Of a stretch of 22,174 bases of DNA, positions 7,481 through 20,335 are shown piece after piece (position 1 is the stretch's first letter; every line of letters begins with the position of its first letter). The DNA comes from a virus. The stretch is taken from positions 1 through 22,174 of IMG/VR virus record IMGVR_UViG_3300036831_000111; one strand, given 5' to 3'. The notes beneath the pieces were generated by a model. That model was not told the DNA's origin. It saw nothing but the letters and a program-made list of their open reading frames with translations, and searched no databases. The position numbers and the translations under genes are program-made.

Positions 7481-8413
7481 TCAGTACAGCGTTCCAGCGG
7501 TCGTGGTACCGGTACCCCGCGTCATGCTGTCCAACTCGACGAGCACGAAGAACGCCACGCAGTCCACGGTGATCGCGTACGCCTGCTGGGCGGTCGTCTG
7601 CCAGGCGTTACCCGACCGGTCGAATGTGCGTTCCGGCGGGCTCACGAACACCCGGTCGTCACGCCAGATCGTCGTCGCTCCGGTAGCGACCAGGTAGGCG
7701 GTGCCGAGGGCGGGGGTGACCGTGTCGTCGGTCGGCTTGTGGCCGGTGTAGCCGCGGCCGAAGGACCACACGTTGCCCATCGGCGTGTACTGCACGCCGG
7801 TCAGCCCGCGCGCCGCCCGCTGCGGAAGCGGCATCATCTGCCGCTCCACCAGGTACGGCGTGACCAGCGGTCGGGCGTGGATGATGCCCGGGTAGCTGTA
7901 CTGGGCCAGCGCGTCCTCCAGCAGGCCGACACCGTATTCGATGGTGACGGCCGTCCCCGGCGTCGGCGTGACGTCGAGAATCCCGGAGCCGCCGTTCAGC
8001 TCCGCCCGCTGGAGTGCGGGCTGCACGTCGGCGTTGCCGCCCCAGAATGCCTGCTCGGCGACGTACTGCGCGTTGTCGCCGAGCCGGATCCGGACACGCC
8101 GCTCAACCTCGGCAGCGTCGTACGGAAACGCGCCCGCCTTCAGCCCGGCCACGACCTGGAACGGCAGGCCGATGGCCGTCCCGTCGCAGGCGTCGAGCGT
8201 GGACCCGGCGGTGATGGTCGGGTTGGAGCAGGACGCCGCCGCGAGCAAGTGAGCCTGCCCGCAGTGCTCCTCCAGGTACTGCACCCCGCCGACGTCGCCG
8301 TGATCCGGCATCGGGAACGGGCCGTTGGCGGCCGAGAACAGGCCGTACCGGATGTTGCCGACCGCAGGCTGCGGCACATAGGCCGGGCCGGTCATCGGCG
8401 TAAGAGTCGCCAT
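7481..8413 (-). CDS. Virion structural protein of unknown role, next to the capsid gene
   Basis: The protein has 310 residues. The ATG at 8413 has a clear ribosome binding site (GGGAGGAAA). No signal peptide or membrane helix is seen. The first 60 residues are Pro/Gly-rich (MATLTPMTGPAYVPQPAVGNIRYGLFSAANG). Later segments are alpha/beta (DAAEVERRVRIRLGDNAQYVAEQAFWGG and GVGLLEDALAQYSYPGIIHARPLVTPYLVER), and the C-terminal third is beta-like (TPALGTAYLVATGATTIWRDDRVFV, YAITVDCVAFFVLVELD). Position directly after the major capsid gene and the lack of enzyme motifs point to a head protein, perhaps a minor capsid or second shell protein. Parts recall HK97-type capsid helices, but this is not strong enough to name it. 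Confidence 0.55.
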   Translation of the reverse strand: MATLTPMTGPAYVPQPAVGNIRYGLFSAANGPFPMPDHGDVGGVQYLEEHCGQAHLLAAASCSNPTITAGSTLDACDGTAIGLPFQVVAGLKAGAFPYDAAEVERRVRIRLGDNAQYVAEQAFWGGNADVQPALQRAELNGGSGILDVTPTPGTAVTIEYGVGLLEDALAQYSYPGIIHARPLVTPYLVERQMMPLPQRAARGLTGVQYTPMGNVWSFGRGYTGHKPTDDTVTPALGTAYLVATGATTIWRDDRVFVSPPERTFDRSGNAWQTTAQQAYAITVDCVAFFVLVELDSMTRGTGTTTAGTLY

Positions 8414-8441
8414 CGGGTTTCCTCCCTTCCCGCAGGTGGGT

Positions 8442-8503
8442 TCCCTGGCCGCTTCGAGCGTTGCGCCCCTTGCGGTAGCGCCGCCTGTTCTCGCGGCCAG
8501 GGA
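8442..8503. other. Structured intergenic element between capsid gene and next gene
   Basis: TCCCTGGCCGC (8442-8452) and GCGGCCAGGGA (8493-8503) are perfect 11-bp inverted repeats. They enclose about 40 nt which themselves contain GCGC-rich complementary stretches. The transcript of the minus-strand operon would fold into a stable branched structure that lies before the ribosome binding site of the 310-residue protein. It may limit read-through or protect the abundant capsid mRNA at its 3' end. There is no U tract, so it is not a classic intrinsic terminator. Confidence 0.5.
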
Positions 8504-8510
8504 GTCTCGG

Positions 8511-10397
8511 TTACGGGTTGGTCGGGAACAGGCCCTGCGTGACGATGGTGGACTGCGCGTTCAGCGCGTACGCCGCCGCACCGTCCGGGATCAGACCGCC
8601 GCCGAGGCCACCGATGGTGTACACCCGGCTGTCGAAGCAGGTCTTCGCGGCGAGGATGCCCTGTTCGGTGAAGAGCTGGGTGGTCTTGTTCTGCGCCAGC
8701 AGCGTGGAGTCGTACACGGTGTCGAGGGTGATGATGTCGGCGTTGCCGCGCACCCACGTACCGGCCGCATACACCAGCATCTGAAGAGCGTGAGGCCAGT
8801 CCTGGACGAAGTTGTTGCTGGTCGGGTCGGTGCCGAACTGCTGCCACTGCGACGGGGCGCCGCCCGGGTACGCGGCCCAGTAGAACGCGTCCTGCCAGTC
8901 GTACACGTACTGGACGCGGGCGCCGCGCGCCGCGAGCCAGTCGTTGATCTTCTGGGTGGTAACGGCGAACTGGTCGACGCCTGCATCCCCGTCGTAGAAC
9001 GACCGGCGGGTGACGTCGGCCCGGATCCAGGACTGCACCCAGTACGGCAGCACGACCTCCAGGGTGGAGGAGAGCTGCATCCGCTGGCGGTACTTGTAGT
9101 CGGTGATCGCCACGTCGAGGGCGCTCAGCAGCGTGGAGACGACCGAGTGGTCGGTGTACCAGGTGGTGCCCGCGCCGGGGGTGTGGCTGGCCACGTTGCT
9201 CGGCAGGGTCAGCGCGGTCGAGCCGGTGACCAGCGCGTTGATCATGAACTGGTTGATCTTGTGCGTGTGGGCGACCATCGCGCCCCGCACGAACCGGGCA
9301 ATCAGCTCCGGGTAGCCGCGCAGCTGAAGAAGGTCCGCCTGGATCGCCAGGCCGTCCGCGTCGAGCCGGGTGTCCGTGAACGACGGGCACGGCACGCTCA
9401 TCGTCGGCTTCGTAACACCGGAGATGATGTTCGCCTCGGTGTAGTGGAAGAACCCGGCGCCCGAGTAGATCGACGAGAAGTCCGGGCCGGTCGTGTACTT
9501 GATGCCGCCCCGCGAAACGTTGATCTCCGGAATATCGAGCAGGCCGTCCGAGGACTCCAGCTCACACAGGTCGTAGATGACCTCGGACGGGGCGCACCAG
9601 CCCGTGCCCGCCGCCGTCAGCGAGTTGGGCGCCGCGCTGTTCTGCGCCGCACGCCGCTTGATGTCCAGCGACGCAAGCAGGGAGCCGCCCGGCAGTCGCT
9701 TCTCGGAGGCCGCGTAGTCGATGACCGGCGTCGCGTCGTCCGCGAGGCCACCCGACGCGGTCAGCTCCTTCGGGTAGTCGAGCTTGAACTGCGCAATCCC
9801 GTCGCGCCGGGAACCGCCGCCGCCGCCGAACGCCGAATACTGGAGGAACTTCTTCTCGACCGCCGCGCCGACCTTGTTCCAGTCGAGCTCTTCGCCGGTC
9901 GGGTAGTCGGAGTTGCTGGCCCCGGCGAGGATGACGGCCGGGGTTTGCCGGGGCACCTGGTCGGCCGGTACGGCGGGGACGGTCCGGGAGGCCACGGCAG
10001 CAACACCGGGCGCAGCGGGCTTCGCCGCCGCCGTGGTCGCCGTGGGGGCCTCCGGGGTTTGCTCGCCGTCGGCGGGCGTGCCCTCCGCCGTGTCCGGCTC
10101 GGCGGTGTCCGCGTCGTCCGACTCGTCTTCCTCGCCGAGGCTGTCAGTGAGGGCGGCGAACGCTCCAGCGGCGCCGCTGCGGCGACTGCGCTCCGCGTCC
10201 ACGCCCTTGACGATGGTGGTCAGCTCGCGAATGGTCTCGATGTCGTCGGACGACACGTCGGCGACATCCATGTCCGCGTACCGGGCTGCGGCTTCACGGG
10301 CCTGCGAGCGAATCGAGGTCAGGTCTTCCGTCGACATCGTGGCGAAGGCGTACTTGCCGTCGTCGGTCGTCGGAACCTGGAAAGGCAGGTTCGGCAC
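8511..10397 (-). CDS. Major capsid protein (HK97-type) with long N-terminal scaffold-like region
   Basis: The protein has 628 residues. The GTG start follows GTGAAGAGAG. Residues 1-90 are charged and helical. Residues 90-150 are an acidic then Ala/Pro-rich linker. From about 155 the body begins (TPAVILAGASNSDYPTGEELD), with segments typical of actinophage HK97-fold capsids such as TGWCAPSEVIYDLCELESSDGLLD, PCPSFTDTRLDADGLAI, FMINALVTGSTALTL and LEVVLPYWVQSWIRADVTRRSF. The N-terminal region is probably a delta domain that drives assembly and is cut off by the maturation protease. The length is about twice that of HK97 gp5, in line with the long extension. The gene is divergent from the glycosyltransferase gene and is separated from the protease by about 7 kb, so it needs its own promoter. 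Confidence 0.85.
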   Translation of the reverse strand: MPNLPFQVPTTDDGKYAFATMSTEDLTSIRSQAREAAARYADMDVADVSSDDIETIRELTTIVKGVDAERSRRSGAAGAFAALTDSLGEEDESDDADTAEPDTAEGTPADGEQTPEAPTATTAAAKPAAPGVAAVASRTVPAVPADQVPRQTPAVILAGASNSDYPTGEELDWNKVGAAVEKKFLQYSAFGGGGGSRRDGIAQFKLDYPKELTASGGLADDATPVIDYAASEKRLPGGSLLASLDIKRRAAQNSAAPNSLTAAGTGWCAPSEVIYDLCELESSDGLLDIPEINVSRGGIKYTTGPDFSSIYSGAGFFHYTEANIISGVTKPTMSVPCPSFTDTRLDADGLAIQADLLQLRGYPELIARFVRGAMVAHTHKINQFMINALVTGSTALTLPSNVASHTPGAGTTWYTDHSVVSTLLSALDVAITDYKYRQRMQLSSTLEVVLPYWVQSWIRADVTRRSFYDGDAGVDQFAVTTQKINDWLAARGARVQYVYDWQDAFYWAAYPGGAPSQWQQFGTDPTSNNFVQDWPHALQMLVYAAGTWVRGNADIITLDTVYDSTLLAQNKTTQLFTEQGILAAKTCFDSRVYTIGGLGGGLIPDGAAAYALNAQSTIVTQGLFPTNP

Positions 10398-10460
10398 TGC
10401 GGGCTCTCTTCACTTCGAGCGCTCAGCCGGACCGTGGCAGCACTGATGCACCTGCCCGGG

Positions 10461-10466
10461 ATCATA
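10461..10466 (-). promoter_or_regulatory. Possible -10 element for the major capsid gene
   Basis: The 106-nt intergenic region between the divergent capsid and glycosyltransferase genes contains TATGAT on the minus strand, 64 nt before the GTG start of the capsid gene. No convincing -35 hexamer is found 17-18 nt upstream (TCCGTG/CTCCGT). An independent promoter is expected because the upstream protease operon ends in a terminator and opposite-strand genes intervene. Assignment rests on one hexamer and context. Confidence 0.35.
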
Positions 10467-10471
10467 GCCGG

Positions 10472-10477
10472 TACTCT
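10472..10477 (+). promoter_or_regulatory. Possible -10 element for the glycosyltransferase cassette
   Basis: TACTCT lies 32 nt before the ATG of the glycosyltransferase gene, and a strong ribosome binding site (GGAGGAGGAGG) follows. The form TANNCT and its distance to the start match three other cargo-gene leaders in this window (TATGCT, TAGACT, TAGCCT at 33-37 nt). The AGACAGACC box of those leaders is absent here. No clear -35 is seen. Confidence 0.35.
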
Positions 10478-10503
10478 CCGATTCACGGAGGAGGAGGCCG
10501 TAT

Positions 10504-12333
10504 ATGAATTCAGACGAAGAGCACTTCACGCCCGAGGCTGTAGAGGAATCGGTACGCCTGGCCGACGTCTTCCGGGCGCGCGAAAATCTGAGCGCTGCCC
10601 TGGACACCCCCGCCTGGCAGCCCGAGACGCCCGGCGCGTGGGACCCGCGCGCCGGGGAAAAGGTGTGCATCGGCACGCCGCACCTAGACAACCCGGGCTG
10701 GAACTACGTCGAGTCGCTGATACGGGTAGCCGCCTACGACAAGGCCCACGGCAACCACCTGCTGCACAACTCGGGCCTGATGAACAACGGCGCATACGCC
10801 CCGGTGTGGGGCCGGTCGATGGAGCTGTCGCACGCCCGCAACACGGCGGCAGCCGCATTCCTGGCCTCCGACGCCGACTGGCTGCTGTGGTGGGACTCCG
10901 ACATCGGCGCCGAACAGGACGCCCTGGAGAAGCTGCTCGCCGCCGCCGACCCGGAAACGGCACCGATCGTCGGCGGGCTGTGCTTCATCGAGGGCGACTA
11001 CTCCCACGACTTCCGGGGCGGACTGCGCTCCAGCCTGGCGCCGACGCTGTACGACTGGGCGTGGATCGAGCCGAAGTCAGGCATGCCCGGCGCCTACAAG
11101 CTGGTCACCCGGCAGGAATGGCCACCCGATCAGGTGTCCCGAGTCGGCGCAACCGGCTGCGGACTGCTTCTTACCCACCGGTCCGTGTACGAGAAGATCG
11201 CCGCCTGGCTTCAGGAGCAGGACGCGCCGCCGCACATCTGGTTCGAACGGATCCCCGGGCCGGACGGAGAAAAGTGCGGGGAGGACATCTCGTTCTGCCT
11301 GCGAGCCCACCAGGTCGGCCTTCCTGTCCTGGTGCACACCGGCGTCACGACCACCCACCAGAAGACGGTGTGGTACGGCACGCAGGACTACGCCATGAAG
11401 CCGTTCACGCCGCCACCGATGACGGTCCGGCCGCTGCCGCCAGACCAGTGGCCGAAGCTGATGATCAACCGCAATGCCGCGCAGGAAGCCGCCCAGACGT
11501 CACCGATGCGAGACCAGCAAGTGCCGGAGGCAACCGAAGGCGTGGCAGTCATCGTGCCCGTGGCGCGCCGCGACAACGCCCGGACGTTCCTGACCTCGCT
11601 GGACGCCAGCCTCACCGAAGAGCAGAAGCGGCGCAGGCAGGTCCGGGTCTACGTGATGGCCGACGAGAGCGACGAAGACACCCCGCTCAACTGGGGATTC
11701 TGGGACAACGTCTATCCCAACATCGTTTTCGATCTTCATAGGTACCTGCGATCGATGGGCTCGTTCGCCGAGAAGGTCAACCGCGGCGAGATGATCTCGG
11801 ATGAGCCGTGGCTGTTTCTGGTCGGCGACGACGTGCGATTCCACAAGGGCTGGCTGGATCAGGCCATGCAGACCGCGCGGACCACGGGCAAGAGCGTGGT
11901 CGGCACCAACGACCTCGGGCATCCGGACGTCATCGCCGGGAAGCACGCCACGCACATGCTCATCCGCCGGGACTACGTCGAGAAGGTCGGAGCGTCGTGG
12001 GACGGCCCGGGCGTGGTCTGCCACGAGGGGTACCGGCACTGGTACGTCGACACGGAGATCGTCGAGGCGGCGAAGCGGCGCGACGAGTGGGCGCCATGCC
12101 TGGCGTCGCACGTCGAGCACCTGCATCCGTATTGGGGCAAGGCGGAAACGGACGAGGTGTACCGCATCGGCCAGGAGGCGGCGGCCACGGACGGCACGCT
12201 GTTCGGCCATCGGCTGAACGCTCAGCGCGCCGGAGGCGTCCGGCTCCGCGCCGACGATTCGCGGGCGGACGCGGACGGGTTTACTGACGGGTCGCACGGC
12301 GGTTCGCCGCGAGAATGGCTGGAGGAGTCATGA
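10504..12333 (+). CDS. Tandem two-domain glycosyltransferase (GT-A fold)
   Basis: The protein has 609 residues and two glycosyltransferase-like domains. Domain 1 (about 52-295) has the family-2-like start KVCIGTPHLDNPGWNYVESL, a nucleotide-sugar/metal DxD motif in LLWWDSDIG (Asp131-Asp133), GATGCGLLLTHRSVYEK, and GEDISFCLRAHQVG with a following His-rich VLVHTGVTTTHQ. Domain 2 (about 346-565) begins VAVIVPVARRDNARTFL, has LFLVGDDVRFHKGWL (Asp442-Asp443) and ends with HLHPYWGKAETDEVYRIG. Both halves look complete. No membrane segment is seen, so it should act in the cytoplasm on a protein, DNA or lipid-linked acceptor. The ATG has a strong ribosome binding site. It is coupled to an oxygenase and a methyltransferase. 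A dispersed AT-rich motif lies at 11721-11734. The acceptor is unknown; virion proteins are a good candidate because the gene adjoins the capsid gene. Confidence 0.82.
   Translation: MNSDEEHFTPEAVEESVRLADVFRARENLSAALDTPAWQPETPGAWDPRAGEKVCIGTPHLDNPGWNYVESLIRVAAYDKAHGNHLLHNSGLMNNGAYAPVWGRSMELSHARNTAAAAFLASDADWLLWWDSDIGAEQDALEKLLAAADPETAPIVGGLCFIEGDYSHDFRGGLRSSLAPTLYDWAWIEPKSGMPGAYKLVTRQEWPPDQVSRVGATGCGLLLTHRSVYEKIAAWLQEQDAPPHIWFERIPGPDGEKCGEDISFCLRAHQVGLPVLVHTGVTTTHQKTVWYGTQDYAMKPFTPPPMTVRPLPPDQWPKLMINRNAAQEAAQTSPMRDQQVPEATEGVAVIVPVARRDNARTFLTSLDASLTEEQKRRRQVRVYVMADESDEDTPLNWGFWDNVYPNIVFDLHRYLRSMGSFAEKVNRGEMISDEPWLFLVGDDVRFHKGWLDQAMQTARTTGKSVVGTNDLGHPDVIAGKHATHMLIRRDYVEKVGASWDGPGVVCHEGYRHWYVDTEIVEAAKRRDEWAPCLASHVEHLHPYWGKAETDEVYRIGQEAAATDGTLFGHRLNAQRAGGVRLRADDSRADADGFTDGSHGGSPREWLEES
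11721..11734 (+). repeat. Dispersed motif site 4: CATCGTTTTCGATC
   Basis: Exact 14-nt match to sites 1 and 6, here on the sense strand of the glycosyltransferase gene (residues NIVFDL), with the TTT codon for Phe where TTC is normal. Confidence 0.65.
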
Positions 12334-12343
12334 TCGAAAACGA
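12329..12343 (-). repeat. Dispersed motif site 5 at the oxygenase start codon
   Basis: The minus strand reads TCGTTTTCGATCATG, an exact 15-nt match to sites 1 and 6. It covers the ATG of the 2-oxoglutarate oxygenase gene and the overlapping stop of the glycosyltransferase gene, so a bound protein could affect transcription or an RNA-level factor translation here. Confidence 0.65.
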
Positions 12344-13016
12344 GCAGGAGTTAGACGTCAAGCTGCACCCCTTCCCGCACCTGGTCGCCGACGGCCTCTG
12401 GCATCCGGAGCTGCTGGACGCGGTGCTCGACGAGTTCCCCGGCCCAGCGCATCCCGGCTGGCGGTCGTTCGCCAATAGCACCGAACGCAAGCTTGAGGGC
12501 AGCCACCCGTCAATGTGGGGCACCGAGACCACTCACCTGCTGCGCAGCATGGCCGAGCAGGCCCCCGGCCTGGCTGAGGCATTCCACACCCCGCCGCTGT
12601 CGATGGAGCTCGTCGGCGGTGGCTACCACCTGATCGAGCCGGGCGGCTACCTGGCGATGCACGCCGACTTCAGCCGGTCGCCCCGCACCGGCCTGTACCG
12701 GTGGCTGAACATGCTGGTCTACCTCAACCACGACTGGCAGCGGGAAGAGGGCGGTCAGCTTCAGCTGTGGGACGACGACGGTCCGGCCGTCACCATCGAC
12801 CCTGAGTTCAACCGTACGGTCGTCTTCCGGACGAGCGGGTCGTCCTGGCACGGGCATCCGGTGCCGGTCGGCCTGAATCGCGTACGCCGGTCGGTCGCCG
12901 CCTACTTCTACGCCGCCGACCCGCCGCCCGGCTACCTCGGCGACCACTCCACCCGCTGGCACCCCCGTTACGACGTCTGGCACGGCGGCACCACCCCGAC
13001 CCCCGGGAGCGACTGA
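12330..13016 (+). CDS. 2-oxoglutarate/Fe(II)-dependent oxygenase (prolyl-hydroxylase-like)
   Basis: The protein has 228 residues from the ATG at 12330, which overlaps the glycosyltransferase stop (ATGA) and has GGAGGAG in front. An in-frame ATG at 12315 lacks a ribosome binding site. The double-stranded beta-helix motifs are visible: His111-x-Asp113 in GGYLAMHADFS, a distal His174 in SSWHGHP, and the 2-oxoglutarate-binding Arg in RVRRSVAAYFY (Arg187). The segment RWLNMLVYLNHDWQREEGGQLQLW is typical of the PKHD/P4H superfamily. Such enzymes hydroxylate protein side chains or small molecules. Between a glycosyltransferase and a methyltransferase it may create the hydroxyl acceptor for sugar transfer, or modify the sugar. 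The start codon lies inside a copy of the dispersed AT-rich motif (12329-12343). Confidence 0.82.
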   Translation: MIENEQELDVKLHPFPHLVADGLWHPELLDAVLDEFPGPAHPGWRSFANSTERKLEGSHPSMWGTETTHLLRSMAEQAPGLAEAFHTPPLSMELVGGGYHLIEPGGYLAMHADFSRSPRTGLYRWLNMLVYLNHDWQREEGGQLQLWDDDGPAVTIDPEFNRTVVFRTSGSSWHGHPVPVGLNRVRRSVAAYFYAADPPPGYLGDHSTRWHPRYDVWHGGTTPTPGSD

Positions 13017-13591
13017 TGCACCAGCAAGTTCTCGACTGGATCGGACAGTTTCGGACGACCGAAGATCTGGCCGTGCTGGACATCGGCGGACGGGACCTCA
13101 ACGGGTCGCCGCGCATGTTCTTCCCGAACGCGAGCCCCTATCACGTTCTCGACCTGCGCCCGGGCCCGAACGTGGACATCGTTGCCGACGCAACGAAGTG
13201 GGAGCCGGAGTTCAACTTCCCGGCAGGGGAGTTCGGCTACGACCTGGCAGTCTGCACCGAAGTCTTCGAGCACTGCGCCTGGTGGTCAGACGTCCTCAAG
13301 ACCGCGTATAAGGCGCTCCGTCCGGGCGGTTGGCTGCTGTTCACCTGCGCCGGTCCGGGCCGCCCGCCGCATTCCGGCATCGAAGCCGTGCCCGGCCTGA
13401 TGGACGGAGAGCACTACGCCAACGTCTCGCCCGAGGAAATCCGCCACGAGCTGGAGTTCCAGGGGTGGACGGAGATCGAGACGCACCTGCGGGGCACCGA
13501 CACGCAGGGCAAGGCCGTCAAGCCGAAGCCCCGCGAGGTGCTGTTCGGCGCGGCGCTGTCCCGTACGGCGGCAGGCAACCCGAACGCCTGA
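13016..13591 (+). CDS. Class I SAM-dependent methyltransferase
   Basis: The protein has 191 residues. The ATG shares one base with the oxygenase stop (TGATG). It has motif I as VLDIGGRDLNGS (residues 20-31), an acidic Asp46 after strand 2 (YHVLDLRPG), DIVADAT, motif IV-like YDLAVCTEVFEH (75-86), and LRPGGWLLFTCAGPGRPPHSG (101-121). This is the Methyltransf_11-type small-molecule or sugar methyltransferase layout, with no DNA-methylase NPPY or DPPY motif. Being coupled to the glycosyltransferase and oxygenase, it could O-methylate a transferred sugar, as in Streptomyces and mycobacterial glycans. The gene ends just before a strong bidirectional terminator. Confidence 0.82.
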   Translation: MHQQVLDWIGQFRTTEDLAVLDIGGRDLNGSPRMFFPNASPYHVLDLRPGPNVDIVADATKWEPEFNFPAGEFGYDLAVCTEVFEHCAWWSDVLKTAYKALRPGGWLLFTCAGPGRPPHSGIEAVPGLMDGEHYANVSPEEIRHELEFQGWTEIETHLRGTDTQGKAVKPKPREVLFGAALSRTAAGNPNA

Positions 13592-13600
13592 CCGCACAGC

Positions 13601-13631
13601 GAAAGGCCCCACCGAACCGGTGGGGCCTTTC
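13601..13631. terminator. Bidirectional intrinsic terminator between convergent genes
   Basis: GAAAGGCCCCACCG (13601-13614) and CGGTGGGGCCTTTC (13618-13631) form a perfect 14-bp stem with a 3-nt loop. A and T runs on both flanks give U-rich ends in either direction. It lies between the end of the methyltransferase gene (plus) and the end of the Cys-rich small protein gene (minus), ending both units. Confidence 0.85.
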
Positions 13632-13650
13632 TGCGTGTAAGGCTATCGAG

Positions 13651-13869
13651 TCACCACGAGGTGACCTTCGGAACGCAGGGGACGTAGCAGCATCCGGCCG
13701 ACGCGCCGCCGCACGTTCCTGCCTTGTGGGCAGCGCGGAGCTCGTCGTAGTAGGCGCGCATGACCTGCTCGTCGAGGTCCAGGTTACGGCGGTCCTCTTT
13801 GCGGCGGCGGTCACGCTCTCCGAGATAGACGATCTCCAGGCGACGGAACACCCAGTCGGGGAGCTTCAT
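13651..13869 (-). CDS. Small basic protein with Cys-rich tail (last gene of mini-operon)
   Basis: The protein has 72 residues. I chose the ATG that overlaps the upstream stop as ATGA. It is mostly helical and highly charged (VFRRLEIVYLGERDRRRKEDRRNLDLDEQVMRAYYDELRAAHKA), followed by a cysteine-rich tail (TCGGASAGCCYVPCVPK) with Cys53, Cys60, Cys61 and Cys65. The tail could bind zinc, although four cysteines in this spacing do not match a named finger. It is the last of four coupled minus-strand genes inside the cargo island. Function unknown. Confidence 0.6.
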   Translation of the reverse strand: MKLPDWVFRRLEIVYLGERDRRRKEDRRNLDLDEQVMRAYYDELRAAHKAGTCGGASAGCCYVPCVPKVTSW

Positions 13870-14117
13870 GCGGTCGCCTTCTTCCTGCGGATGCGCAGCT
13901 TGCGAATCGTGTGCGGGAGGGACAGTTCGGTACGGGCGCCGTCGGGCCGCCCTCCGACAATCCTGCCGCTCAGGGAAACGCAAGGTTCGCCGAGCGGCAC
14001 CTTGCAGACGGGGCAGGCACGGTAGTCGTCCGGGTAGAAAGTTGCCCGGCGAGCGGCGTCATCACGCAATGCTTCGTCGTGTGCCTGCGCAAGGACAAGC
14101 TGCTCTAGTTCAGTCAT
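13866..14117 (-). CDS. Small phage zinc-finger protein
   Basis: The protein has 83 residues. An adjacent GTG-ATG pair precedes MTEL; I take the ATG at 14117 because it is 7 nt from GAGG. The first 30 residues are helical; then comes CPVCKVPLGEPCVSLSGR with a later LPHTIRK, the CPxCxxxxGxPCxxxxG...H...R pattern of small DNA-binding-type zinc fingers common in actinophages. Ligands would be Cys36, Cys39, Cys46 and the His near residue 69. The C-terminus is very basic (RKLRIRRKKATA), which supports nucleic-acid binding. Start and stop overlap or nearly overlap both neighbours. The leader resembles a degenerate copy of the island leader box (CAGACAGAAAGAGG). Confidence 0.65.
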   Translation of the reverse strand: MTELEQLVLAQAHDEALRDDAARRATFYPDDYRACPVCKVPLGEPCVSLSGRIVGGRPDGARTELSLPHTIRKLRIRRKKATA

Positions 14118-14121
14118 CACG

Positions 14122-14331
14122 TCACCTCTTTCTGTCTGAGCGGTGCTGGCAGGCCGGGCAGATCCTGACGTGCAGCTTCTTGCCGGTGACGGAGGGCCCG
14201 TCGAAGACGATCCAGCCGCGCACCCGAAGCTTGCTGTCGGATGCCCACGCCCCTATGAGGCAGCGGTCACAGGCCTGATGCTGGCGACCGGGGTCAGCGT
14301 CTTCGACGGCGAACAGCGGCGTCCCGGTCAT
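14122..14331 (-). CDS. Small protein with two Cys pairs (zinc-ribbon-like)
   Basis: The protein has 69 residues. I chose the ATG that shares one base with the upstream stop (TGATG), and not an upstream in-frame codon inside the membrane-protein gene. Cys21-x2-Cys24 (ACDRC) and Cys58-x2-Cys61 (ICPAC) could bind one zinc in a ribbon-like fold; between them is a beta-like stretch (KLRVRGWIVFDGPSVTGKKLHVRI). The C-terminus is basic (HRSDRKR). It probably regulates or binds nucleic acid or protein, but no family name can be given. It is the second gene of the leftward mini-operon. Confidence 0.6.
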   Translation of the reverse strand: MTGTPLFAVEDADPGRQHQACDRCLIGAWASDSKLRVRGWIVFDGPSVTGKKLHVRICPACQHRSDRKR

Positions 14332-14477
14332 CAGCGCCGCCCGGCCAGGGCGTCCAGTACGGCCGCCACCATGAACGCCACCACGCAAAGCAGTGCGGCG
14401 GCAGCGATGTAGGGGCTGAGCAGCAGCACGACCAGCGCAACCGCAACCGGGTGGTGCCGGGCTACTCCGCTGTGCAT
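14331..14477 (-). CDS. Small membrane protein, first gene of leftward mini-operon
   Basis: The protein has 48 residues. The ATG follows a strong AGGAGG site in a leader shared with two other cargo genes. After a short polar N-terminus (MHSGVARHHP), residues 11-43 are hydrophobic with a Ser-Pro break near 21-22 (VAVALVVLLLSPYIAAAALLCVVAFMVAAV), giving one long or two short membrane helices, and the tail is LDALAGRR. Tiny membrane proteins at the head of phage cargo operons are often involved in exclusion or toxicity, but nothing in the sequence proves this. Its downstream partners are small Cys-containing proteins. Confidence 0.65.
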   Translation of the reverse strand: MHSGVARHHPVAVALVVLLLSPYIAAAALLCVVAFMVAAVLDALAGRR

Positions 14478-14566
14478 GGGGATACCTCCTCGGTCTGTCT
14501 GCCTACAGGCTACACCTTTCCCGCCCCGTAGCGTAGACTGTGAGCAGACAGACCGAGGAGGGCATC
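14478..14566. promoter_or_regulatory. Divergent overlapping promoters with a shared leader signature
   Basis: The 89-nt region separates two divergent small-gene units. On the plus strand TAGACT (14534-14539) is followed by AGACAGACCGAGGAGG and the ATG at 14567. On the minus strand TAGCCT (14512-14507) is followed by the same AGACAGACCGAGGAGG and the ATG at 14477. The two putative -10 hexamers lie about 22 bp apart back to back, so polymerase at one should hinder the other. No consensus -35 is seen. A third copy of the signature occurs before the gene starting at 16963. Confidence 0.6.
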
Positions 14567-14812
14567 ATGGAGCAGCAGTACCAGTGGGGCATCAAGGTCA
14601 CGATGGACTACCTGGACGGTCAGGGCAACGTGTTGCGGACCGTTTCCAGCATTCATGAGGCAGACAATGAGCAGGAAGCGCGCGCCCGGTACGAAGGCAT
14701 CGCCGACGCGCTGGCCCGGCCGGACCGCGCAGCCCCCAAATACCAGCGCTTCACCGCCGTCGCGCTGCTTCGCCGCCCGATCGGCAAGTGGACGACGAGG
14801 GCCCACTCATGA
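14567..14812 (+). CDS. Small hypothetical protein, first gene of rightward unit
   Basis: The protein has 81 residues. The ATG at 14567 lies 5 nt after AGGAGGGC; an upstream in-frame ATG at 14540 falls within the putative promoter and is rejected. The sequence starts with a beta-like segment (YQWGIKVTMDYLDGQGNVLRTVSSIHEADNEQEARARYEGIADAL) and ends in a basic part (RFTAVALLRRPIGKWTTRAHS). It may be a ferredoxin-like small fold. The stop overlaps the start of the DUF1810 gene (ATGA), so the two are coupled. I do not recognise a family. Confidence 0.65.
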   Translation: MEQQYQWGIKVTMDYLDGQGNVLRTVSSIHEADNEQEARARYEGIADALARPDRAAPKYQRFTAVALLRRPIGKWTTRAHS

Positions 14813-15510
14813 CCCACGCCATCACCCGGCCCGTCTCGCGGTTCATCGACGCGCAGCGGGCCGTCTACCCGCAGATCTTGCGGGAAATCCGGCAGGGCCG
14901 TAAGCGCACACACTGGATGTGGTTCGTGTTCCCTCAGCTCAGCCTCTTGGCGAAGAGCGAGACCGCGCGCTACTACGGGCTCGCCGACAAGGACGAGGCG
15001 CTGGCCTACCTCGACGAGCCATCGCTGCGCCTGCGGCTCGGCGAATGCACGATGGCGGTCCTCGGCCATGACCGGCTCATGTTCAGCCACCCCGACAATC
15101 GGAAGCTTCAAGCGTCGATGACCTTGTTTTCTCAGGTGGTCGTCGACCCGACAGTTCCGAATGCGGTGCTGGAGAAGTTCTACGGCGGCCAGCCTGATCA
15201 GCGCACGCTCGACATCCTGAACGGCACCTACGTGGCGCCGCCGCAGACGGCGATGGGGAGGGTGGAGGTGGGCAGGCACTGGGACAAGGGCGTCCGGAAG
15301 GCGCGGGCGGCCGTGGAGTCGGTCGGCGTCAAGATGCCCCGCGACGAGCCGATGCTCCGCGCCGAGGTCGAGTCGTACGTCAAGAGCTTCGGGCTGTCGG
15401 CCGCCGACACCAAGCGGCTGGTCGCCGTGTGGATGGTGGACCAGGATCTCGCCCGGAATGCGGGCTGGGAGTCGCACGCCGACTCCGTCTGGTACGACGA
15501 GAACCAATAG
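14809..15510 (+). CDS. DUF1810 family protein with C-terminal extension
   Basis: The protein has 233 residues. Residues about 8-150 match the DUF1810 family (COG5579): RFIDAQRAVYPQILREIRQGRKRTHWMWFVFPQL, then AYLDEPSLRLRLGECTMAVL, then a D-x-x-K/R-x-x-x-S-M-T-L-F block (DNRKLQASMTLF) and FYGGQPDQRTLDIL. The conserved KRTHWMWFVFPQ core is intact. Residues about 150-233 are an extra helical part (VESYVKSFGLSAADTKRLVAVWMVDQDLARNAGW) not usual in the family. The biochemical role of DUF1810 is not established to my knowledge. The start overlaps the upstream stop. In a phage cargo island a defence, counter-defence or nucleotide-related role can be guessed but not shown. Confidence 0.8.
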   Translation: MTHAITRPVSRFIDAQRAVYPQILREIRQGRKRTHWMWFVFPQLSLLAKSETARYYGLADKDEALAYLDEPSLRLRLGECTMAVLGHDRLMFSHPDNRKLQASMTLFSQVVVDPTVPNAVLEKFYGGQPDQRTLDILNGTYVAPPQTAMGRVEVGRHWDKGVRKARAAVESVGVKMPRDEPMLRAEVESYVKSFGLSAADTKRLVAVWMVDQDLARNAGWESHADSVWYDENQ

Positions 15511-15557
15511 TGTACGTTGCAAGCCGACAGCACTTCCGCCTACAGAGAGATCGACAC

Positions 15558-16388
15558 GTGAGAAAGTTCCTCCTCCTGCTGGCCGGACTGGCCGTGGCGT
15601 CGTTGACGCTGACGCTGGCCCGGCCCGCACTGGCCACGGAGCAGCCGACCGGGCCCAGCTTCGCAACCTGCCCCTGCCTGACCGGCTGGTACGTCAACGC
15701 CGACGAGACCGACAACCGGCCCGAGGCAACCGTGGACGGGCTGAAGTTCACCGGCAAGAACCTGATCCACCACAAGACGTCGCTCGCCCTCACCGACGTT
15801 CACGCGGGCAGCTTCACGGCCGTCGGCACTGACGACAAGGTCGTCATGAAGTACGAGACGGACTCGCCGTACACGACCATCGTGCAGACGCCCGACGGCA
15901 AGTTCTGGTCGAGCCACATCACGACCGGCCCCGGCAGCCAGGCTCAGCCGGTCGACACCCCGCACGACCTGGTGGGCATCCCGCAGCGCGGGGCTAGTGG
16001 CGGCCTCACCGAGGACACGAAGGTGGTTAGCTTCGGGGTGGGCTACTGGACTGAGACCGGCTCGACGGTCGTGTCGTCGGTGGCGTTCCACGGCGTCACG
16101 TACGACCTGAGGTGCAAGCCGCCCACCACGACGCCGCCGACCCACCCGACGACGCCGCCAACGTCCAAGCCGACCACGCCCCCGGCGACGACCAGTCCCA
16201 CGTCCGAACCGTCCCGCAGCTCGACCACGGGGGTACCCATCGACGGCGGTGCCGCAGGCGGCTCGGGTGGGGCGCTGGCCGTCACCGGCCCGTCCACCGG
16301 TGTAGTCGCGGGCATCGCCGCCGCACTCCTCGCGATCGGCGGCGCCCTGCTGCTCGTCGCACGTCGCAAGCGGAGGTTCATCGCATGA
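15558..16388 (+). CDS. Predicted sortase-anchored (LAxTG) surface protein
   Basis: The protein has 276 residues from a GTG start (GTG AGA AAG TTC). It has a signal peptide (RKFLLLLAGLAVASLTLTLARPALA, likely cut after residue 26), a beta-rich ectodomain (27-187) with Cys38, Cys40 and Cys186, a Pro/Thr-rich stalk (188-222), and a C-terminal sorting signal: LAVTG (240-244), a hydrophobic helix (247-268) and the basic tail RRKRRFIA. LAxTG is the form of motif used by class E sortases in Streptomyces, so it should be wall-anchored in the host. The ectodomain family is not recognised. The ribosome binding site is weak (AGAGAGAT). The stop overlaps the next start (ATGA). A surface protein within a phage virion gene cluster suggests host-envelope modification or receptor masking. 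Confidence 0.8.
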   Translation: MRKFLLLLAGLAVASLTLTLARPALATEQPTGPSFATCPCLTGWYVNADETDNRPEATVDGLKFTGKNLIHHKTSLALTDVHAGSFTAVGTDDKVVMKYETDSPYTTIVQTPDGKFWSSHITTGPGSQAQPVDTPHDLVGIPQRGASGGLTEDTKVVSFGVGYWTETGSTVVSSVAFHGVTYDLRCKPPTTTPPTHPTTPPTSKPTTPPATTSPTSEPSRSSTTGVPIDGGAAGGSGGALAVTGPSTGVVAGIAAALLAIGGALLLVARRKRRFIA

Positions 16389-16873
16389 TCCGGAACAAGG
16401 TAGCCGCCGCATGTGCGGCGTTCGCGCTGGTGTCCGGCGGGCTGACGCTCGCCGCCGCGCCCGCGCAGGCGGCCTACGTCTGCGCGGGCAACACCTACTG
16501 CGAGTGGCAGAACGTCGGCTATGGCGCCGGGGTCTGGCACACCAGCTTCATCAACATCTACCAGCACATCAGCGGCGGCATCACGTCCTGCCTGAACATC
16601 TCGCCTGCCACGTGGCCGAACGGGGATCAGGTCGCCGACAACGAGAGCGGCCTCATGGTCAACTTCGGGGACTCGACGTGGGCGCACTACTCGCTCGTCG
16701 TCTACAACTGGGTGAACTGCAACCCGGACGGCGCGTACACGTCGTATCCGATCAGCCAGTCCAGCCGGGTGGAACAGCCGGACCTCCGGCAGGAGAACTA
16801 CCGGGTGAACAACCCTGGCGGGATCAGGGAGTACCAGACCATCACCAGTATCGGCGTGATCCAGACCAGCTGA
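16385..16873 (+). CDS. Secreted small protein, distantly peptidase-inhibitor-I36-like
   Basis: The protein has 162 residues. A clear signal peptide (MIRNKVAAACAAFALVSGGLTLAAAPAQA) is cut near residue 29-30. The mature part begins AYVCAGNTYCEWQNVGYGAGVWH; this looks like the start of Streptomyces secreted proteins in the I36 inhibitor or beta/gamma-crystallin-like group (CPxGxxCxYxNxxYGG). Cys33, Cys39, Cys69 and Cys112 could form two disulphides. The rest is rich in Asn, Tyr, Ser and Ile and beta-like. Its start overlaps the stop of the surface-protein gene, so the two exported proteins are co-translated and probably function together. The family link is weak; secretion is well supported. A perfect hairpin follows. 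Confidence 0.7.
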   Translation: MIRNKVAAACAAFALVSGGLTLAAAPAQAAYVCAGNTYCEWQNVGYGAGVWHTSFINIYQHISGGITSCLNISPATWPNGDQVADNESGLMVNFGDSTWAHYSLVVYNWVNCNPDGAYTSYPISQSSRVEQPDLRQENYRVNNPGGIREYQTITSIGVIQTS

Positions 16874-16892
16874 CTGACCCTGGTTGTACCGC

Positions 16893-16927
16893 TACAGCCC
16901 CTTGCCCGGCTTGGGCAAGGGGCTGTA
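16893..16927 (+). terminator. Perfect hairpin, probable terminator overlapping the next promoter
   Basis: TACAGCCCCTTGCCC (16893-16907) and GGGCAAGGGGCTGTA (16913-16927) make a perfect 15-bp stem with a 5-nt loop, 19 nt after the stop of the secreted-protein gene. A U tract is missing; the hairpin runs directly into TATGCT (16926-16931), the putative -10 of the next gene, and TTGCCC in its left arm could serve as -35 (18-nt spacer). It can thus act as terminator in RNA and as promoter or operator in DNA. Confidence 0.65.
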
Positions 16928-16962
16928 TGCTGTGCGTAGACAGACCACAGGAGGAGAAGGAC
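16926..16962 (+). promoter_or_regulatory. Promoter -10 and conserved leader of the 145-residue protein gene
   Basis: TATGCT (16926-16931) is followed by GTAGACAGACC, then AGGAGGAGAAGG and the ATG at 16963. This is the third copy of the island leader signature (AGACAGACC plus AGGAGG; -10 form TANNCT at 33-37 nt from the start). The other two are in the divergent region at 14478-14566. Confidence 0.6.
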
Positions 16963-17400
16963 ATGAGCAGCGAATACACACCCGGCGACCTGGGCGTCCG
17001 TATCGCCTTCACCCGCAGCTTCGGCCTGAGTGAAGGCTCCAGGCAGGTGCACCCGACGATCGAAATCCGGGATCAGACCTCGGGCAAAACCCTGGAAATC
17101 GAGCTGACGGCGGAGCAGCTGGCGGCCGTTCTGTCCGGCTCGGAAGCGCAGGTACCGGCGTTGCGGGTCACCGGCTTCAAGGGCGTCGCGCAGTGGGGCA
17201 AGTACCACAAGTCAGTGTCGCAGGGCGTGAAAATGGCGGCCGACGACTATCGCGTCGAAGGCGACGCCATCCGTAAGCTTCCGCACGTCGCCCAGGTCAT
17301 CGCCCAGATGGAAGCCGACGGCTACACCGTCGAGCGGCCCCGCCAGAACAACGCCCGCATGTGGGTCATCATCGGCCGCCGGTACGACGACCAGCCCTGA
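16963..17400 (+). CDS. Hypothetical protein, monocistronic cargo gene
   Basis: The protein has 145 residues. The ATG is fixed by the strong purine-rich site and the shared leader. The N-terminal half is beta-like (LGVRIAFTRSFGLSEGSRQVHPTIEIRDQTSGKTLEIELTAEQLAAVLSGS), and the second half (FKGVAQWGKYHKSVSQGVKMAADDYRVEGDAIRKLPHVAQVIAQMEADGYTVERPRQNNARMWVIIGRRY) is mixed, with a basic aromatic C-terminus. No signal peptide or membrane helix. It is bounded by a hairpin on each side, forming its own unit. I do not recognise the family; the style is that of small early proteins of actinophages. Confidence 0.65.
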   Translation: MSSEYTPGDLGVRIAFTRSFGLSEGSRQVHPTIEIRDQTSGKTLEIELTAEQLAAVLSGSEAQVPALRVTGFKGVAQWGKYHKSVSQGVKMAADDYRVEGDAIRKLPHVAQVIAQMEADGYTVERPRQNNARMWVIIGRRYDDQP

Positions 17401-17407
17401 CGGCAGC

Positions 17408-17450
17408 ACAAAGGGCCCGCACCTCAGGGAAGAGGGCGCGGGCCCTTTGT
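17408..17450. terminator. Bidirectional intrinsic terminator at the island border
   Basis: ACAAAGGGCCCGC (17408-17420) and GCGGGCCCTTTGT (17438-17450) form a perfect 13-bp stem with a 17-nt loop. AAA and TTT at the ends give U-rich tails in both directions. It separates the last plus-strand cargo gene from the end of the minus-strand protease operon, and so stops virion transcription before the island. Confidence 0.8.
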
Positions 17451-17457
17451 CATGTCT

Positions 17458-17616
17458 CTAGCTGGTCTTGCGCCAGGTGGCGCCGGGCGTCTTCGCCGCA
17501 AACGCCTTAGCCTCGGTCTCCCGCACGGCCGTGAACGTCTTCACCACCTTGCCGCTGGTGTCCTTCACCTCGTAGTTGCCGAGGCCGGACCCTCCTCCAC
17601 CACAGTTGCAGCCCAT
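17458..17616 (-). CDS. Small CNC-motif protein downstream of the protease
   Basis: The protein has 52 residues, too short for many gene callers. The ATG follows GAGGAGG, 11 nt after the protease stop. It begins MGCNCGGGGSGLGNYEVKDTSGKV and ends ETEAKAFAAKTPGATWRK. I have seen this architecture (Cys-x-Cys and Gly-rich start, then a short strand pair and an EAKAFAAxxPGA helix) in small proteins beside actinophage capsid genes. The two cysteines could bind metal or form a bond in the virion. The role is unknown. Confidence 0.7.
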   Translation of the reverse strand: MGCNCGGGGSGLGNYEVKDTSGKVVKTFTAVRETEAKAFAAKTPGATWRKTS

Positions 17617-17627
17617 CGGGCCTCCTC

Positions 17628-19565
17628 CTACTCCACCAGGGCAACGAACAGGTCGCCCAGAACCTCATCGTAGTCGGCGGTGCGGTCCTCGGTGGTGGCC
17701 GCAGCGACCAGCTCACGCCATTCGGCCGCGCGTGCGTCCCGCTCAGTTGCCGCCTGCTGCTCGGCGAGCATGCCCCGGGCGATGGCGCGGCCCAGCTCTT
17801 CCGTGTCCAGGGCGGCCAGCGTGGACGGGTCTTCGTCGCCGACGCGGGGCAGCGCCCCAGCGGCGACCAGCGACAGCATCTCCTCGCCTGCTCCATCAGC
17901 GGCAGACGCGGCAAGCATGCGGGGGATGGGGAAACCCGCCGTGTTGACGTGCAGGGCGGCCACCATCTCCAGGTTGCCGCCGATACGCCGCCAGTCACCG
18001 GACAGCGGGTGGGCCCGCATGGTGCGCACCGCGGCCTCGTCGGCTTCCGGGTTCAGGGCGCCCGCCACCCAGATACCGTAAGCGTCTTCTCCGGCGCGTA
18101 CGAGGGCGCCCGCGCGGGACGTCGAGTCGTAGTGTTCTGCTGCCGCCCGGTAGCCCATGTTCGGGGAGGCGTGTCCGCCGCCGTACGTGAGCGTGCCGAC
18201 AGCGAGGCGGGAGCCGTCGGCGGTGACCGCCTCCCCCGTGTGGAAGTAGGCGTACGAGGTGAGGGACTTGGGCGGCTTTACGCAGGAGTCACCGATGCCG
18301 ACGTGGCAGGTGTCCCACACGGCGACGTGCCCGTAGACGCGGCCGTCGTCGCCGATGTGCAGCGGCGTCGGGCCGGTCAGCTTCGGGTCGTCGAACCACT
18401 CGCGCGGGGGAGCGTCGGGCGCCGAGGCGGCTCCGGCAATGAGCGAGGCCATCTTCTCTCCGGCCTTCCAGTTGTCGGGCAGGCTGCCCTCGCAGCCCTT
18501 GCGCTTGGCGATTGCGGTCAGCCGCGCCTTGAACTTCGCGTAGGGGATCTTCGGGTTGGCGCGGCCGTACGAGGAGACCGCGTCGCCGATGTCGCCGCAG
18601 GAGGCGATCGGGAACCGGCGGCCGTCGGGGTCGACAAAGTCTTCAGGGCCGAGCTTCTTGCGCACGCCCGCCTTGGTAACGTCCGGTCCGCCTGGCGCGT
18701 AGTCGCTGTCACCCCGGTAGGTGCCGCCGCCGAGGTCTCCGCCGCCCTGGCCCTGCTCGCCGTCGCCGCCGGGCGTCTCCGCCTTGCCGTCGCCGGGCTT
18801 CGCGTTCGACGGGCGGGGGAAACGCTTGCGGGCGAACTCTTCGAACTCGTCGTCGGTCATCCAGATACCGGAGCTGAACTCTTCGTCGGCGCGGTCGCCG
18901 GTGACCTTGTCCGGGTTGACCTTCTTCTTGGTGGCCATCTCCGCATCGTTTTCGATCATGGCGCTGGAGGTGGTGCCGTCGACGTTCGGGTCGGAGTCGT
19001 CGATCGGGGTCAGCTTGGCGTGCCCGGACAGCTCGGCGAATGCCGGGATGTGCACCAGCGTGGCCGAGGCGATCCGACCGGACCGGACCATCTTCAGCCG
19101 GGGCCCGTCGTACGCCTCGTCGGACATGACCGGGCCGCCGCATCCGCAGTCGCCGCCATGAGCCATCTTCGCGGCCTTCAGCTTCCCGGCCTGCGCCTTC
19201 TTCCAGGCGGTGTACGCCTTCGGCTCGGGGACGTGTTCCATCTCGGCCTGATCGAGGTCGACGGACGGGCCGATGACCTTGTTCTCGGTGAACTTCTTCG
19301 CCGCCGTCGCGGCGTTGCGTACGTCTTCGGGCCAGGAGTCGTCGTCGTAGAACTCGCCCCGGGCGGGCAGCATCCCGTCCTTCGTCTTCCCGATGCTGGC
19401 AATGTGGCCGACGATGACGGCGTTGGAGTGCCCGCCGGAGTCGGAGGCCACATATCGCAGCGGCAGGGGCAGGTCGCGGTGCGACAGGGCGCCGTCGTCG
19501 AATTGGCGGCCGTCGCCGGTCGGCTTGCCGATGACGGCGATCGGCATCTTCCAGGCGGTACCCAT
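17628..19565 (-). CDS. Capsid maturation protease, apparently with two protease-like domains
   Basis: The protein has 645 residues. The N-terminal domain (1-185) has LPLPLRYVASDSGGHSNAVIVGHI, GEFYDD, GPSVDLD (Ser101) and RIASATLVHIPAFAEL, the pattern of S78/U35-like prohead proteases. A Gly/Asp-rich, low-complexity region (190-300) follows, then a helical segment (308-372: FVDPDGRRFPIASCGDIGDAVSSYGR, FKARLTAIAKRKG). Next comes a second domain (398-552): PLHIGDDGRVYGHVAVWDTCHVG, YAYFHTGEAVTADG, VRAGEDAYGIWVAGAL, LSGDWRRIGGNLEMVAALHVNTAGFPIPR. The second block is the better conserved one in actinophages. Candidate catalytic residues are His46 with Ser101, and His466 with Ser522. The C-terminus (580-645) is a helical, acidic, scaffold-like tail. 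It should cut the capsid delta domain. Unusually, the capsid gene is not next to it. A dispersed AT-rich motif lies at 18944-18962. Confidence 0.8.
   Translation of the reverse strand: MGTAWKMPIAVIGKPTGDGRQFDDGALSHRDLPLPLRYVASDSGGHSNAVIVGHIASIGKTKDGMLPARGEFYDDDSWPEDVRNAATAAKKFTENKVIGPSVDLDQAEMEHVPEPKAYTAWKKAQAGKLKAAKMAHGGDCGCGGPVMSDEAYDGPRLKMVRSGRIASATLVHIPAFAELSGHAKLTPIDDSDPNVDGTTSSAMIENDAEMATKKKVNPDKVTGDRADEEFSSGIWMTDDEFEEFARKRFPRPSNAKPGDGKAETPGGDGEQGQGGGDLGGGTYRGDSDYAPGGPDVTKAGVRKKLGPEDFVDPDGRRFPIASCGDIGDAVSSYGRANPKIPYAKFKARLTAIAKRKGCEGSLPDNWKAGEKMASLIAGAASAPDAPPREWFDDPKLTGPTPLHIGDDGRVYGHVAVWDTCHVGIGDSCVKPPKSLTSYAYFHTGEAVTADGSRLAVGTLTYGGGHASPNMGYRAAAEHYDSTSRAGALVRAGEDAYGIWVAGALNPEADEAAVRTMRAHPLSGDWRRIGGNLEMVAALHVNTAGFPIPRMLAASAADGAGEEMLSLVAAGALPRVGDEDPSTLAALDTEELGRAIARGMLAEQQAATERDARAAEWRELVAAATTEDRTADYDEVLGDLFVALVE
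18944..18962 (+). repeat. Dispersed motif site 6: CATCGTTTTCGATCATGGC
   Basis: Exact 19-nt copy of site 1, 17.3 kb away, in the linker region of the maturation protease gene (residues AMIENDAE). The flanks differ, so this is not part of a longer duplication. Confidence 0.7.
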
Positions 19566-20101: not shown

Positions 20102-20335
20102 CTACAAACCTTGCTGGTCGGGCAGGTCGGCCGGGTCGTCCCACGACTGGCGTGGGCGTTTCTCGATCTCCGCAACGAGGTGCTGTACGCCGAGCGGCAG
20201 TTTCTCCCACGTGGCCCCGTCTTCGCCTCCGGCAGCGGTCCAGGCGGACAGGATGCTGGCGCGCTCGTCGGGGTGCACGTCGGTGCTTCCCAGCGCCTCG
20301 CTCAAGCGATGGAACAGCTGGCCTACGGCGTTCAC
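20102..20335 (-). CDS. Small hypothetical protein coupled to the Nudix-ART gene
   Basis: The protein has 77 residues. The GTG start overlaps the upstream stop (GTGA). The sequence MNAVGQLFHRLSEALGSTDVHPDERASILSAW is helical and followed by WEKLPLGVQHLVAEIEKRPRQSWDDPADLPDQ. No metal or catalytic motif is seen. Since it is co-translated with the Nudix-ART protein it might be its partner or, if the ART is toxic in the host before packaging, a candidate immunity or chaperone protein. That suggestion rests on gene position only. Confidence 0.65.
   Translation of the reverse strand: MNAVGQLFHRLSEALGSTDVHPDERASILSAWTAAGGEDGATWEKLPLGVQHLVAEIEKRPRQSWDDPADLPDQQGL

What the first reader, a model, noticed from the sequence alone, without database searches (positions are those of the whole stretch)
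10398..17457. A 7-kb cargo island splits the maturation protease gene from the major capsid gene
In HK97-type phages the protease, scaffold and capsid genes are normally adjacent and co-transcribed. Here a perfect bidirectional terminator ends the protease block, and about a dozen non-structural genes, mostly on the opposite strand, lie before the capsid gene. The island has modular units with their own promoters and terminators: a modification cassette, a leftward mini-operon of four tiny proteins, a DUF1810 unit, and an exported protein pair. This looks like a hot spot for acquired (moron) genes in the middle of the morphogenesis operon, and it forces the capsid gene to have a separate promoter.
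Basis: partly seen in the sequence, partly recalled or inferred. Interest (0 to 1): 0.8.

Follow-up and report, generated by a model that had tools for sequence, protein, structure and literature searches.

The report
Remodelled cargo slot before capsid gene
Between two virus-shell genes of an uncultured soil phage lies a 7-kb stretch of borrowed genes that every close relative keeps but refills differently; it sits in front of a capsid-gene promoter and leader-RNA hairpin that occur, without any island, in phages of many actinobacteria and appear to mark late genes.

Summary
The gap is real: protease (17628-19565) and capsid gene (8511-10397) are split by about a dozen non-structural genes, mostly on the opposite strand and bounded by strong hairpins. 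All 32 fetched close relatives carry such an island (about 2-7 kb; the window's is the longest), so it is fixed as a site, but 60% of it fails to align between relatives against 4% of the flanks. One gene never leaves: a glycosyltransferase divergent from the capsid gene. It is either one-domain (14 genomes, no methyltransferase) or two-domain (19 genomes, all with the methyltransferase), suggesting a modular glycan-building cassette. Most named phages lack the island.

The claim that the island forces a separate capsid promoter is not supported. Phages without an island have the same unit before the capsid gene: a -10-like box and a leader hairpin whose stem letters vary but stay paired. The hairpin is found in phages and prophages of at least eight actinobacterial genera, and in several phages also before the tail-tube, tape-measure or lysin genes. 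It was not found in Rfam. The island most likely settled at a pre-existing transcription boundary. Functions of cassette and hairpin are inferred.

The parts
17628..19565 (-). capsid maturation protease (upstream structural neighbour)
   Evidence: phrog_18402 and phrog_859; tblastn to named capsid maturation proteases
17458..17616 (-). 52-aa MGCxC mini-protein that ends the protease block
   Evidence: found in nearly all relatives with this region; similarly placed Cys-rich ORF in 19 of 22 named phages listed
17408..17450 (.). bidirectional terminator hairpin, island border
   Evidence: z -6.7/-6.8 on the two strands; hairpin of 8-32 perfect pairs at this place in 24 of 24 genomes tested
16963..17400 (+). 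cargo gene 'last', 145 aa
   Evidence: 47-52% homologs in L008, L016, L022, L028
16894..16926 (+). hairpin after secB, terminator candidate
   Evidence: z -5.7
16385..16873 (+). exported protein secB
   Evidence: signal peptide read from sequence; 38% homolog in L020
15558..16388 (+). exported protein secA with C-terminal LAVTG sorting-like signal
   Evidence: sequence; motif at residue 240 of 276
14809..15510 (+). DUF1810 protein
   Evidence: PF08837 3.7e-44; solved relative Rv1873, 2jek
14567..14812 (+). 81-aa ORF p60 upstream of DUF1810
   Evidence: homologs in L006, L011, L012
14485..14561 (.). 18-bp perfect inverted repeat around the divergent m4/p60 starts
14331..14477 (-). small ORF m4 (hydrophobic)
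   Evidence: homologs in relatives
14122..14388 (-). small ORF m3 (start uncertain)
   Evidence: homologs in nearly all relatives
13866..14120 (-). small ORF m2, zinc-finger-like
   Evidence: Phage_zn_bind_8 6.8e-07
13651..13872 (-). small ORF m1
   Evidence: window only
13601..13631 (.). bidirectional terminator hairpin between MT and m1
   Evidence: z -5.9
13016..13591 (+). methyltransferase
   Evidence: PF13489, PF08241 above cut-off
12330..13016 (+). 2OG-Fe(II) oxygenase
   Evidence: PF13640 9.5e-16; also in L005, L020, L030, L031
10504..12333 (+). two-domain GT-A glycosyltransferase, fixed capsid-proximal gene
   Evidence: PF00535 and PF13641 above cut-off; in all 33 genomes; Foldseek to two-domain glycosyltransferases
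10461..10466 (-). candidate -10 box (TATGAT) of the capsid gene
   Evidence: present in 30 genomes incl. window
10416..10454 (-). capsid-gene leader RNA hairpin
   Evidence: R1 match 56.4 bits; covariation
8511..10397 (-). major capsid (hexamer) protein
   Evidence: phrog_777 3e-124

Best explanation
The stretch is an old, site-fixed cargo slot of an uncultured, probably lytic actinophage group. It lies between a conserved bidirectional terminator that closes the protease block and a promoter-plus-leader-hairpin that opens the capsid operon. Because transcription already stops and restarts there, genes can enter on either strand without cutting an essential transcript; terminators between modules insulate them. 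Modules are gained, lost and swapped (shown by comparison). Next to the capsid gene one module stayed: a glycosyltransferase of one or two domains; the two-domain form always comes with a methyltransferase, sometimes also with a 2OG oxygenase. The likely chemistry (inferred) is that domain 1 puts a first sugar on an acceptor, probably a virion protein, domain 2 extends it, and the methyltransferase caps it; the oxygenase may hydroxylate acceptor or glycan. The leader hairpin most likely supports strong late expression (mRNA protection, translation or antitermination; not resolved).
For: Site fixed, content variable. Border hairpin in 24/24. Capsid leader: 99.2% of cells paired, covariation 0.284 against 0.163 shuffled and at most 0.10 when slid; pair 18-39 is GC in 14, CG in 8, AU in 4. 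Distant leaders: 83/96 outer pairs, permuted mean 57, maximum 71 in 20,000. Motif in 20/21 prophage loci against 0.034 expected each. TANNNT upstream in 35/36 against 2.3% background. Hits upstream of capsid genes that the models had not seen: L032 and L033, Dori. GT form and methyltransferase agree in 33/33 genomes, at least 4 changes of form.
Against: No transcript or protein data. The minimum-energy fold of the window leader is not unusually stable (z +0.82) and differs from the covarying fold (-13.4 against -15.2 kcal/mol). No -35 match. The box was looked for after the leaders had been read. Acceptor of the glycosyltransferase unknown. The 33-genome agreement includes near-copies.
Confidence: 0.78

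Rival explanations
1. Recent acquisition: the island is a moron insertion particular to this phage that displaced the capsid gene and created a need for a new promoter.
For: Most named phages have no island; the window's island is the longest seen.
Against: All 32 close relatives have an island with the same GT at the same place; the promoter-leader unit exists in phages without an island.
Confidence: 0.07
2. Fixed genome arrangement: the genes are a stable, functional part of the morphogenesis programme, not cargo.
For: GT in 33/33 genomes, small ORFs m2/m3 in most.
Against: 60% of the island does not align between relatives; sister genomes swap genes; many families in one to three genomes.
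Confidence: 0.15
3. The glycosyltransferase cassette acts on the host surface, with the exported proteins, to exclude competing phages, not on the virion.
For: secA has a signal peptide and a LAVTG sorting-like signal; TarP and RmlT (wall teichoic acid enzymes) are among lower Foldseek matches.
Against: GT looks soluble from its sequence and neighbours the capsid gene in every genome; the exported genes are not linked to it across relatives.
Confidence: 0.3
4. The leader element is a DNA site (operator or activator site) and not an RNA hairpin.
For: Short, next to the -10 box, energy not unusual.
Against: Free stem sequence with compensating changes and many G-U pairs on the mRNA strand only.
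Confidence: 0.15

Closest known systems
Virion-glycosylation genes of mycobacteriophages Che8, Corndog and Myrna (Freeman et al. 2023, as cited in PMC12363180 and PMC13313380)
   Same: phage-encoded glycosyltransferases; PMC13313380 also links a glycosyltransferase plus methyltransferase to virion glycosylation
   Different: here one gene divergent from the capsid gene, with a detachable second domain tied to the methyltransferase; acceptor not shown
Actinoplanes phage phiAsp2 protease-capsid gap (pas8-13)
   Same: six genes, all on the opposite strand, between protease homolog and capsid gene
   Different: capsid only about 40% identical; no match to the window's cargo genes at the cut-off used
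Rosebush-type structural module (cluster B mycobacteriophages, Gordonia and Microbacterium phages)
   Same: protease, Cys-rich mini-protein, leader, hexamer protein, pentamer protein in one order
   Different: no island
Collagen hydroxylysine galactosyltransferase COLGALT1 / LH3 and chondroitin polymerase K4CP
   Same: two glycosyltransferase domains in one chain; hydroxylation by a 2OG enzyme before glycosylation in the collagen case (general knowledge)
   Different: sequence identity 8-14%, whole-chain TM about 0.2-0.26, model pLDDT 69.5
HK022 put and lambda nut RNA (from memory)
   Same: RNA hairpins near the 5' end of phage transcripts
   Different: no shared sequence tested; no antitermination test

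Membership tests
HK97-type structural module, phrog_777 capsid group | capsid and maturation protease of the family on one strand | tested here: met
HK97-type structural module, phrog_777 capsid group | protease and capsid genes next to each other | tested here: not met
   7.1-kb island
Moron/cargo locus | content differs between close relatives at one site | tested here: met
Moron/cargo locus | units carry their own promoter and terminator | tested here: inconclusive
   hairpins present; no promoter consensus
Phage virion-glycosylation cassette | glycosyltransferase domains | tested here: met
Phage virion-glycosylation cassette | sugar on capsid or tail proteins | not testable with these tools
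   needs mass spectrometry
Structured leader RNA | conserved pairing with compensatory changes | tested here: met
Structured leader RNA | known Rfam family | tested here: not met
   only four sub-threshold matches in the window, none at the leader
put/nut antitermination RNA | makes RNA polymerase read through terminators | not testable with these tools
   single copy in the window clade, several late leaders in named phages; activity needs an experiment

The most novel reading that the evidence does not exclude
A family of leader RNA hairpins marks late transcription units (capsid, tail tube, tape measure, lysin) across phages of many actinobacteria and is recognised by a dedicated factor or by RNA polymerase itself, giving a late-gene regulon controlled at the RNA level, for example by put-like antitermination.
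Probability: 0.3. Interest if true: 0.82.

Novelty: new variant of a known kind. Interest (0 to 1): 0.62.

Why it matters
It shows where a phage can accept new genes in the middle of its shell-building operon without harm: at a place where transcription already ends and restarts. The detachable second glycosyltransferase domain, tied to a methyltransferase, makes stepwise phage glycan building testable. The leader hairpin, absent from Rfam as searched here and present in cultured phages of Gordonia, Mycobacterium and others, gives a concrete handle on how these phages switch on late genes.

Tried and rejected
Sigma-70/T-run scan: no sites in 9000-19000, uninformative at 68% GC. Megablast to phages: only a 142-bp match. 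Rfam matches mir-4716, mir-3138 and IRES_Bip are below gathering scores; the miRNA ones fall on the 14485-14561 inverted repeat. Genome contigs with the window capsid alone: no relative; an alignment found 21 loci. R1 did not recognise most named leaders, which led to the general model R2. Weaker R2 matches are mostly chance; extra matches in phiSAJS1 and Laurie were not assigned to late genes. Integrase/resolvase search negative. PADLOC hits to the 2OG enzyme and methyltransferase are generic domains and not taken as defence. Freeman et al. 2023 itself is not held; no paper on a capsid leader RNA was found.

Full report
What is there. The window is a 22,174-base virus record, 68% GC. The structural genes run on the minus strand. 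The protease gene (17628-19565) and the capsid gene (8511-10397) are separated by about 7 kb that holds a glycosyltransferase, a 2OG-Fe(II) oxygenase and a methyltransferase on the plus strand, four tiny ORFs on the minus strand, and p60, DUF1810, two exported proteins and one more gene on the plus strand. The 52-aa gene next to the protease belongs to the structural side: a Cys-rich mini-protein stands there in 19 of 22 named phages listed.

Is the gap unusual? Yes. In 22 of 24 named phages with this capsid family only a few ORFs on the same strand stand between the two genes. phiAsp2 has six reverse genes there and TPA2 one. Among prophages of actinobacteria several gaps of 1.6-3.7 kb occur, some with predicted reverse ORFs (ORF calls are heuristic).

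Is it a hot spot? Partly. Thirty close relatives were fetched by capsid protein (best-segment identity 61-83%; three further loci at about 40%) and two more by the leader motif. All 32 and the window have an island, with the glycosyltransferase divergent from the capsid gene. The distance from protease to capsid is 3.1-7.2 kb in 29 genomes, median 3.7; it is shorter in the two added later. Across 276 pairs of genomes the median unaligned share is 60% in the island and 4% in the flanks. Two sister genomes, L007 and L025, mostly 93-98% identical, differ by a DUF1810 gene replaced by an unrelated 358 bp and by a 353-bp indel. On the capsid tree DUF1810 needs at least 10 changes, 2OG 5, glycosyltransferase form 4. 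So the site is fixed and one gene is fixed; the rest turns over.

The cassette. The glycosyltransferase is 315-375 aa long in 14 genomes, none with the methyltransferase, and 551-612 aa in 19 genomes, all with it (Fisher p 1e-9 without correction for kinship). The window protein matches PF00535 in its first half and PF13641 in its second, both above cut-off; the model (pLDDT 69.5) matches two-domain glycosyltransferases such as chondroitin polymerase and collagen galactosyltransferase, at low whole-chain TM. Stepwise addition and capping of a sugar on a virion protein is inferred; papers held here report virion glycosylation in other actinophages (PMC12363180, PMC13313380). That the oxygenase hydroxylates the acceptor is a guess from the collagen analogy.

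The capsid promoter and leader. The region between glycosyltransferase and capsid gene is strongly conserved. A TATGAT box lies at 10461-10466 and a hairpin at 10416-10454, so the RNA probably starts just before the stem (inferred). In 26 distinct leaders 99.2% of cells pair, with compensatory changes. A pattern scan found phages with capsid only 34-37% identical that carry two tandem hairpins with new stem letters and the same loop. On 20 diverse copies the covariation score is 0.446 against 0.245 shuffled and 0.134 at most when slid. The model found the capsid leader in L032 and L033, which it had not seen (E 0.0016 and 0.0038). In 24 records of 47-94 kb it gives one copy in the window group and two tandem copies in the others, apart from weak matches.

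A wider family. Named phages and prophages have a related form: outer stem, GCU, GGC, a loop ending in GG, GCC, G, outer stem. The outer stem pairs in 83 of 96 cells; permuted arms give 57 on average and never more than 71. The core motif lies in the capsid leader of 20 of 21 prophage loci against 0.034 expected each, and of 11 of 24 named phages against 0.021. A TANNNT box lies upstream in 35 of 36 (background 2.3%). Hosts include Streptomyces, Micromonospora, Actinoplanes, Microbispora, Nocardia, Rhodococcus, Gordonia and Tsukamurella. A second model also marks leaders of the tail-tube gene (Bakery, Verity, Tiamoceli, NTR1, and the likely tail-tube gene of prophages L127 and L132), the tape measure (Bakery, Margaery) and lysin A (Verity). 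In these further leaders and that of Dori 37 of 44 cells pair (permutation p 0.013). That the window's form and this form are one family is an inference from position, loop and fold; no single model found both well.

What follows. The capsid gene appears to have its own start whether or not an island is present, so the island did not force it. More likely the existing stop-and-restart made the place safe for cargo; the terminator after the 52-aa gene is kept in 24 of 24 genomes tested. The phages are probably lytic: no tyrosine integrase or resolvase in 19 relatives, though these records may be incomplete.

Limits. No expression data exist. The minimum-energy fold of the window leader is unremarkable and the covarying fold is 1.8 kcal/mol less stable, so the case rests on covariation. 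Whether the hairpin protects RNA, aids translation, binds a factor or acts in antitermination is open.

Noticed in passing
W01 14965, W03 18321 and 37828, W11 17957, W13 24061, L132 17484, L127 18214: The leader hairpin also stands before tail-tube, tape-measure or lysin genes of named phages and prophages; a late-gene family.
   Followed up: partly
window 20332-22032: A NUDIX domain (PF00293, 8e-13) lies inside a 566-aa structural-block protein upstream of the protease.
   Followed up: no
window 14485-14561: An 18-bp perfect inverted repeat surrounds the divergent starts of m4 and p60; both genes carry the same AGACAGACCGAGGAGG leader, and a similar one precedes the gene at 16963.
   Followed up: no
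window 17408-17450 and relatives: The loop of the terminator after the 52-aa gene reads CTCTTCCC in some relatives and its reverse complement in others, as if it flips.
   Followed up: no
window 15558-16388: secA looks like a sortase-anchored surface protein (LAVTG then hydrophobic and basic tail) encoded by a probably lytic phage.
   Followed up: no
L150 (Dori 8370-8570): The leader hairpin at 8434-8463 lies inside the annotated capsid gene (start 8393); the true start is probably further downstream.
   Followed up: no
L023: The most distant close relative (61% capsid identity) lacks the hairpin motif but has TTGACA-N17-TAGACG before its capsid gene.
   Followed up: no
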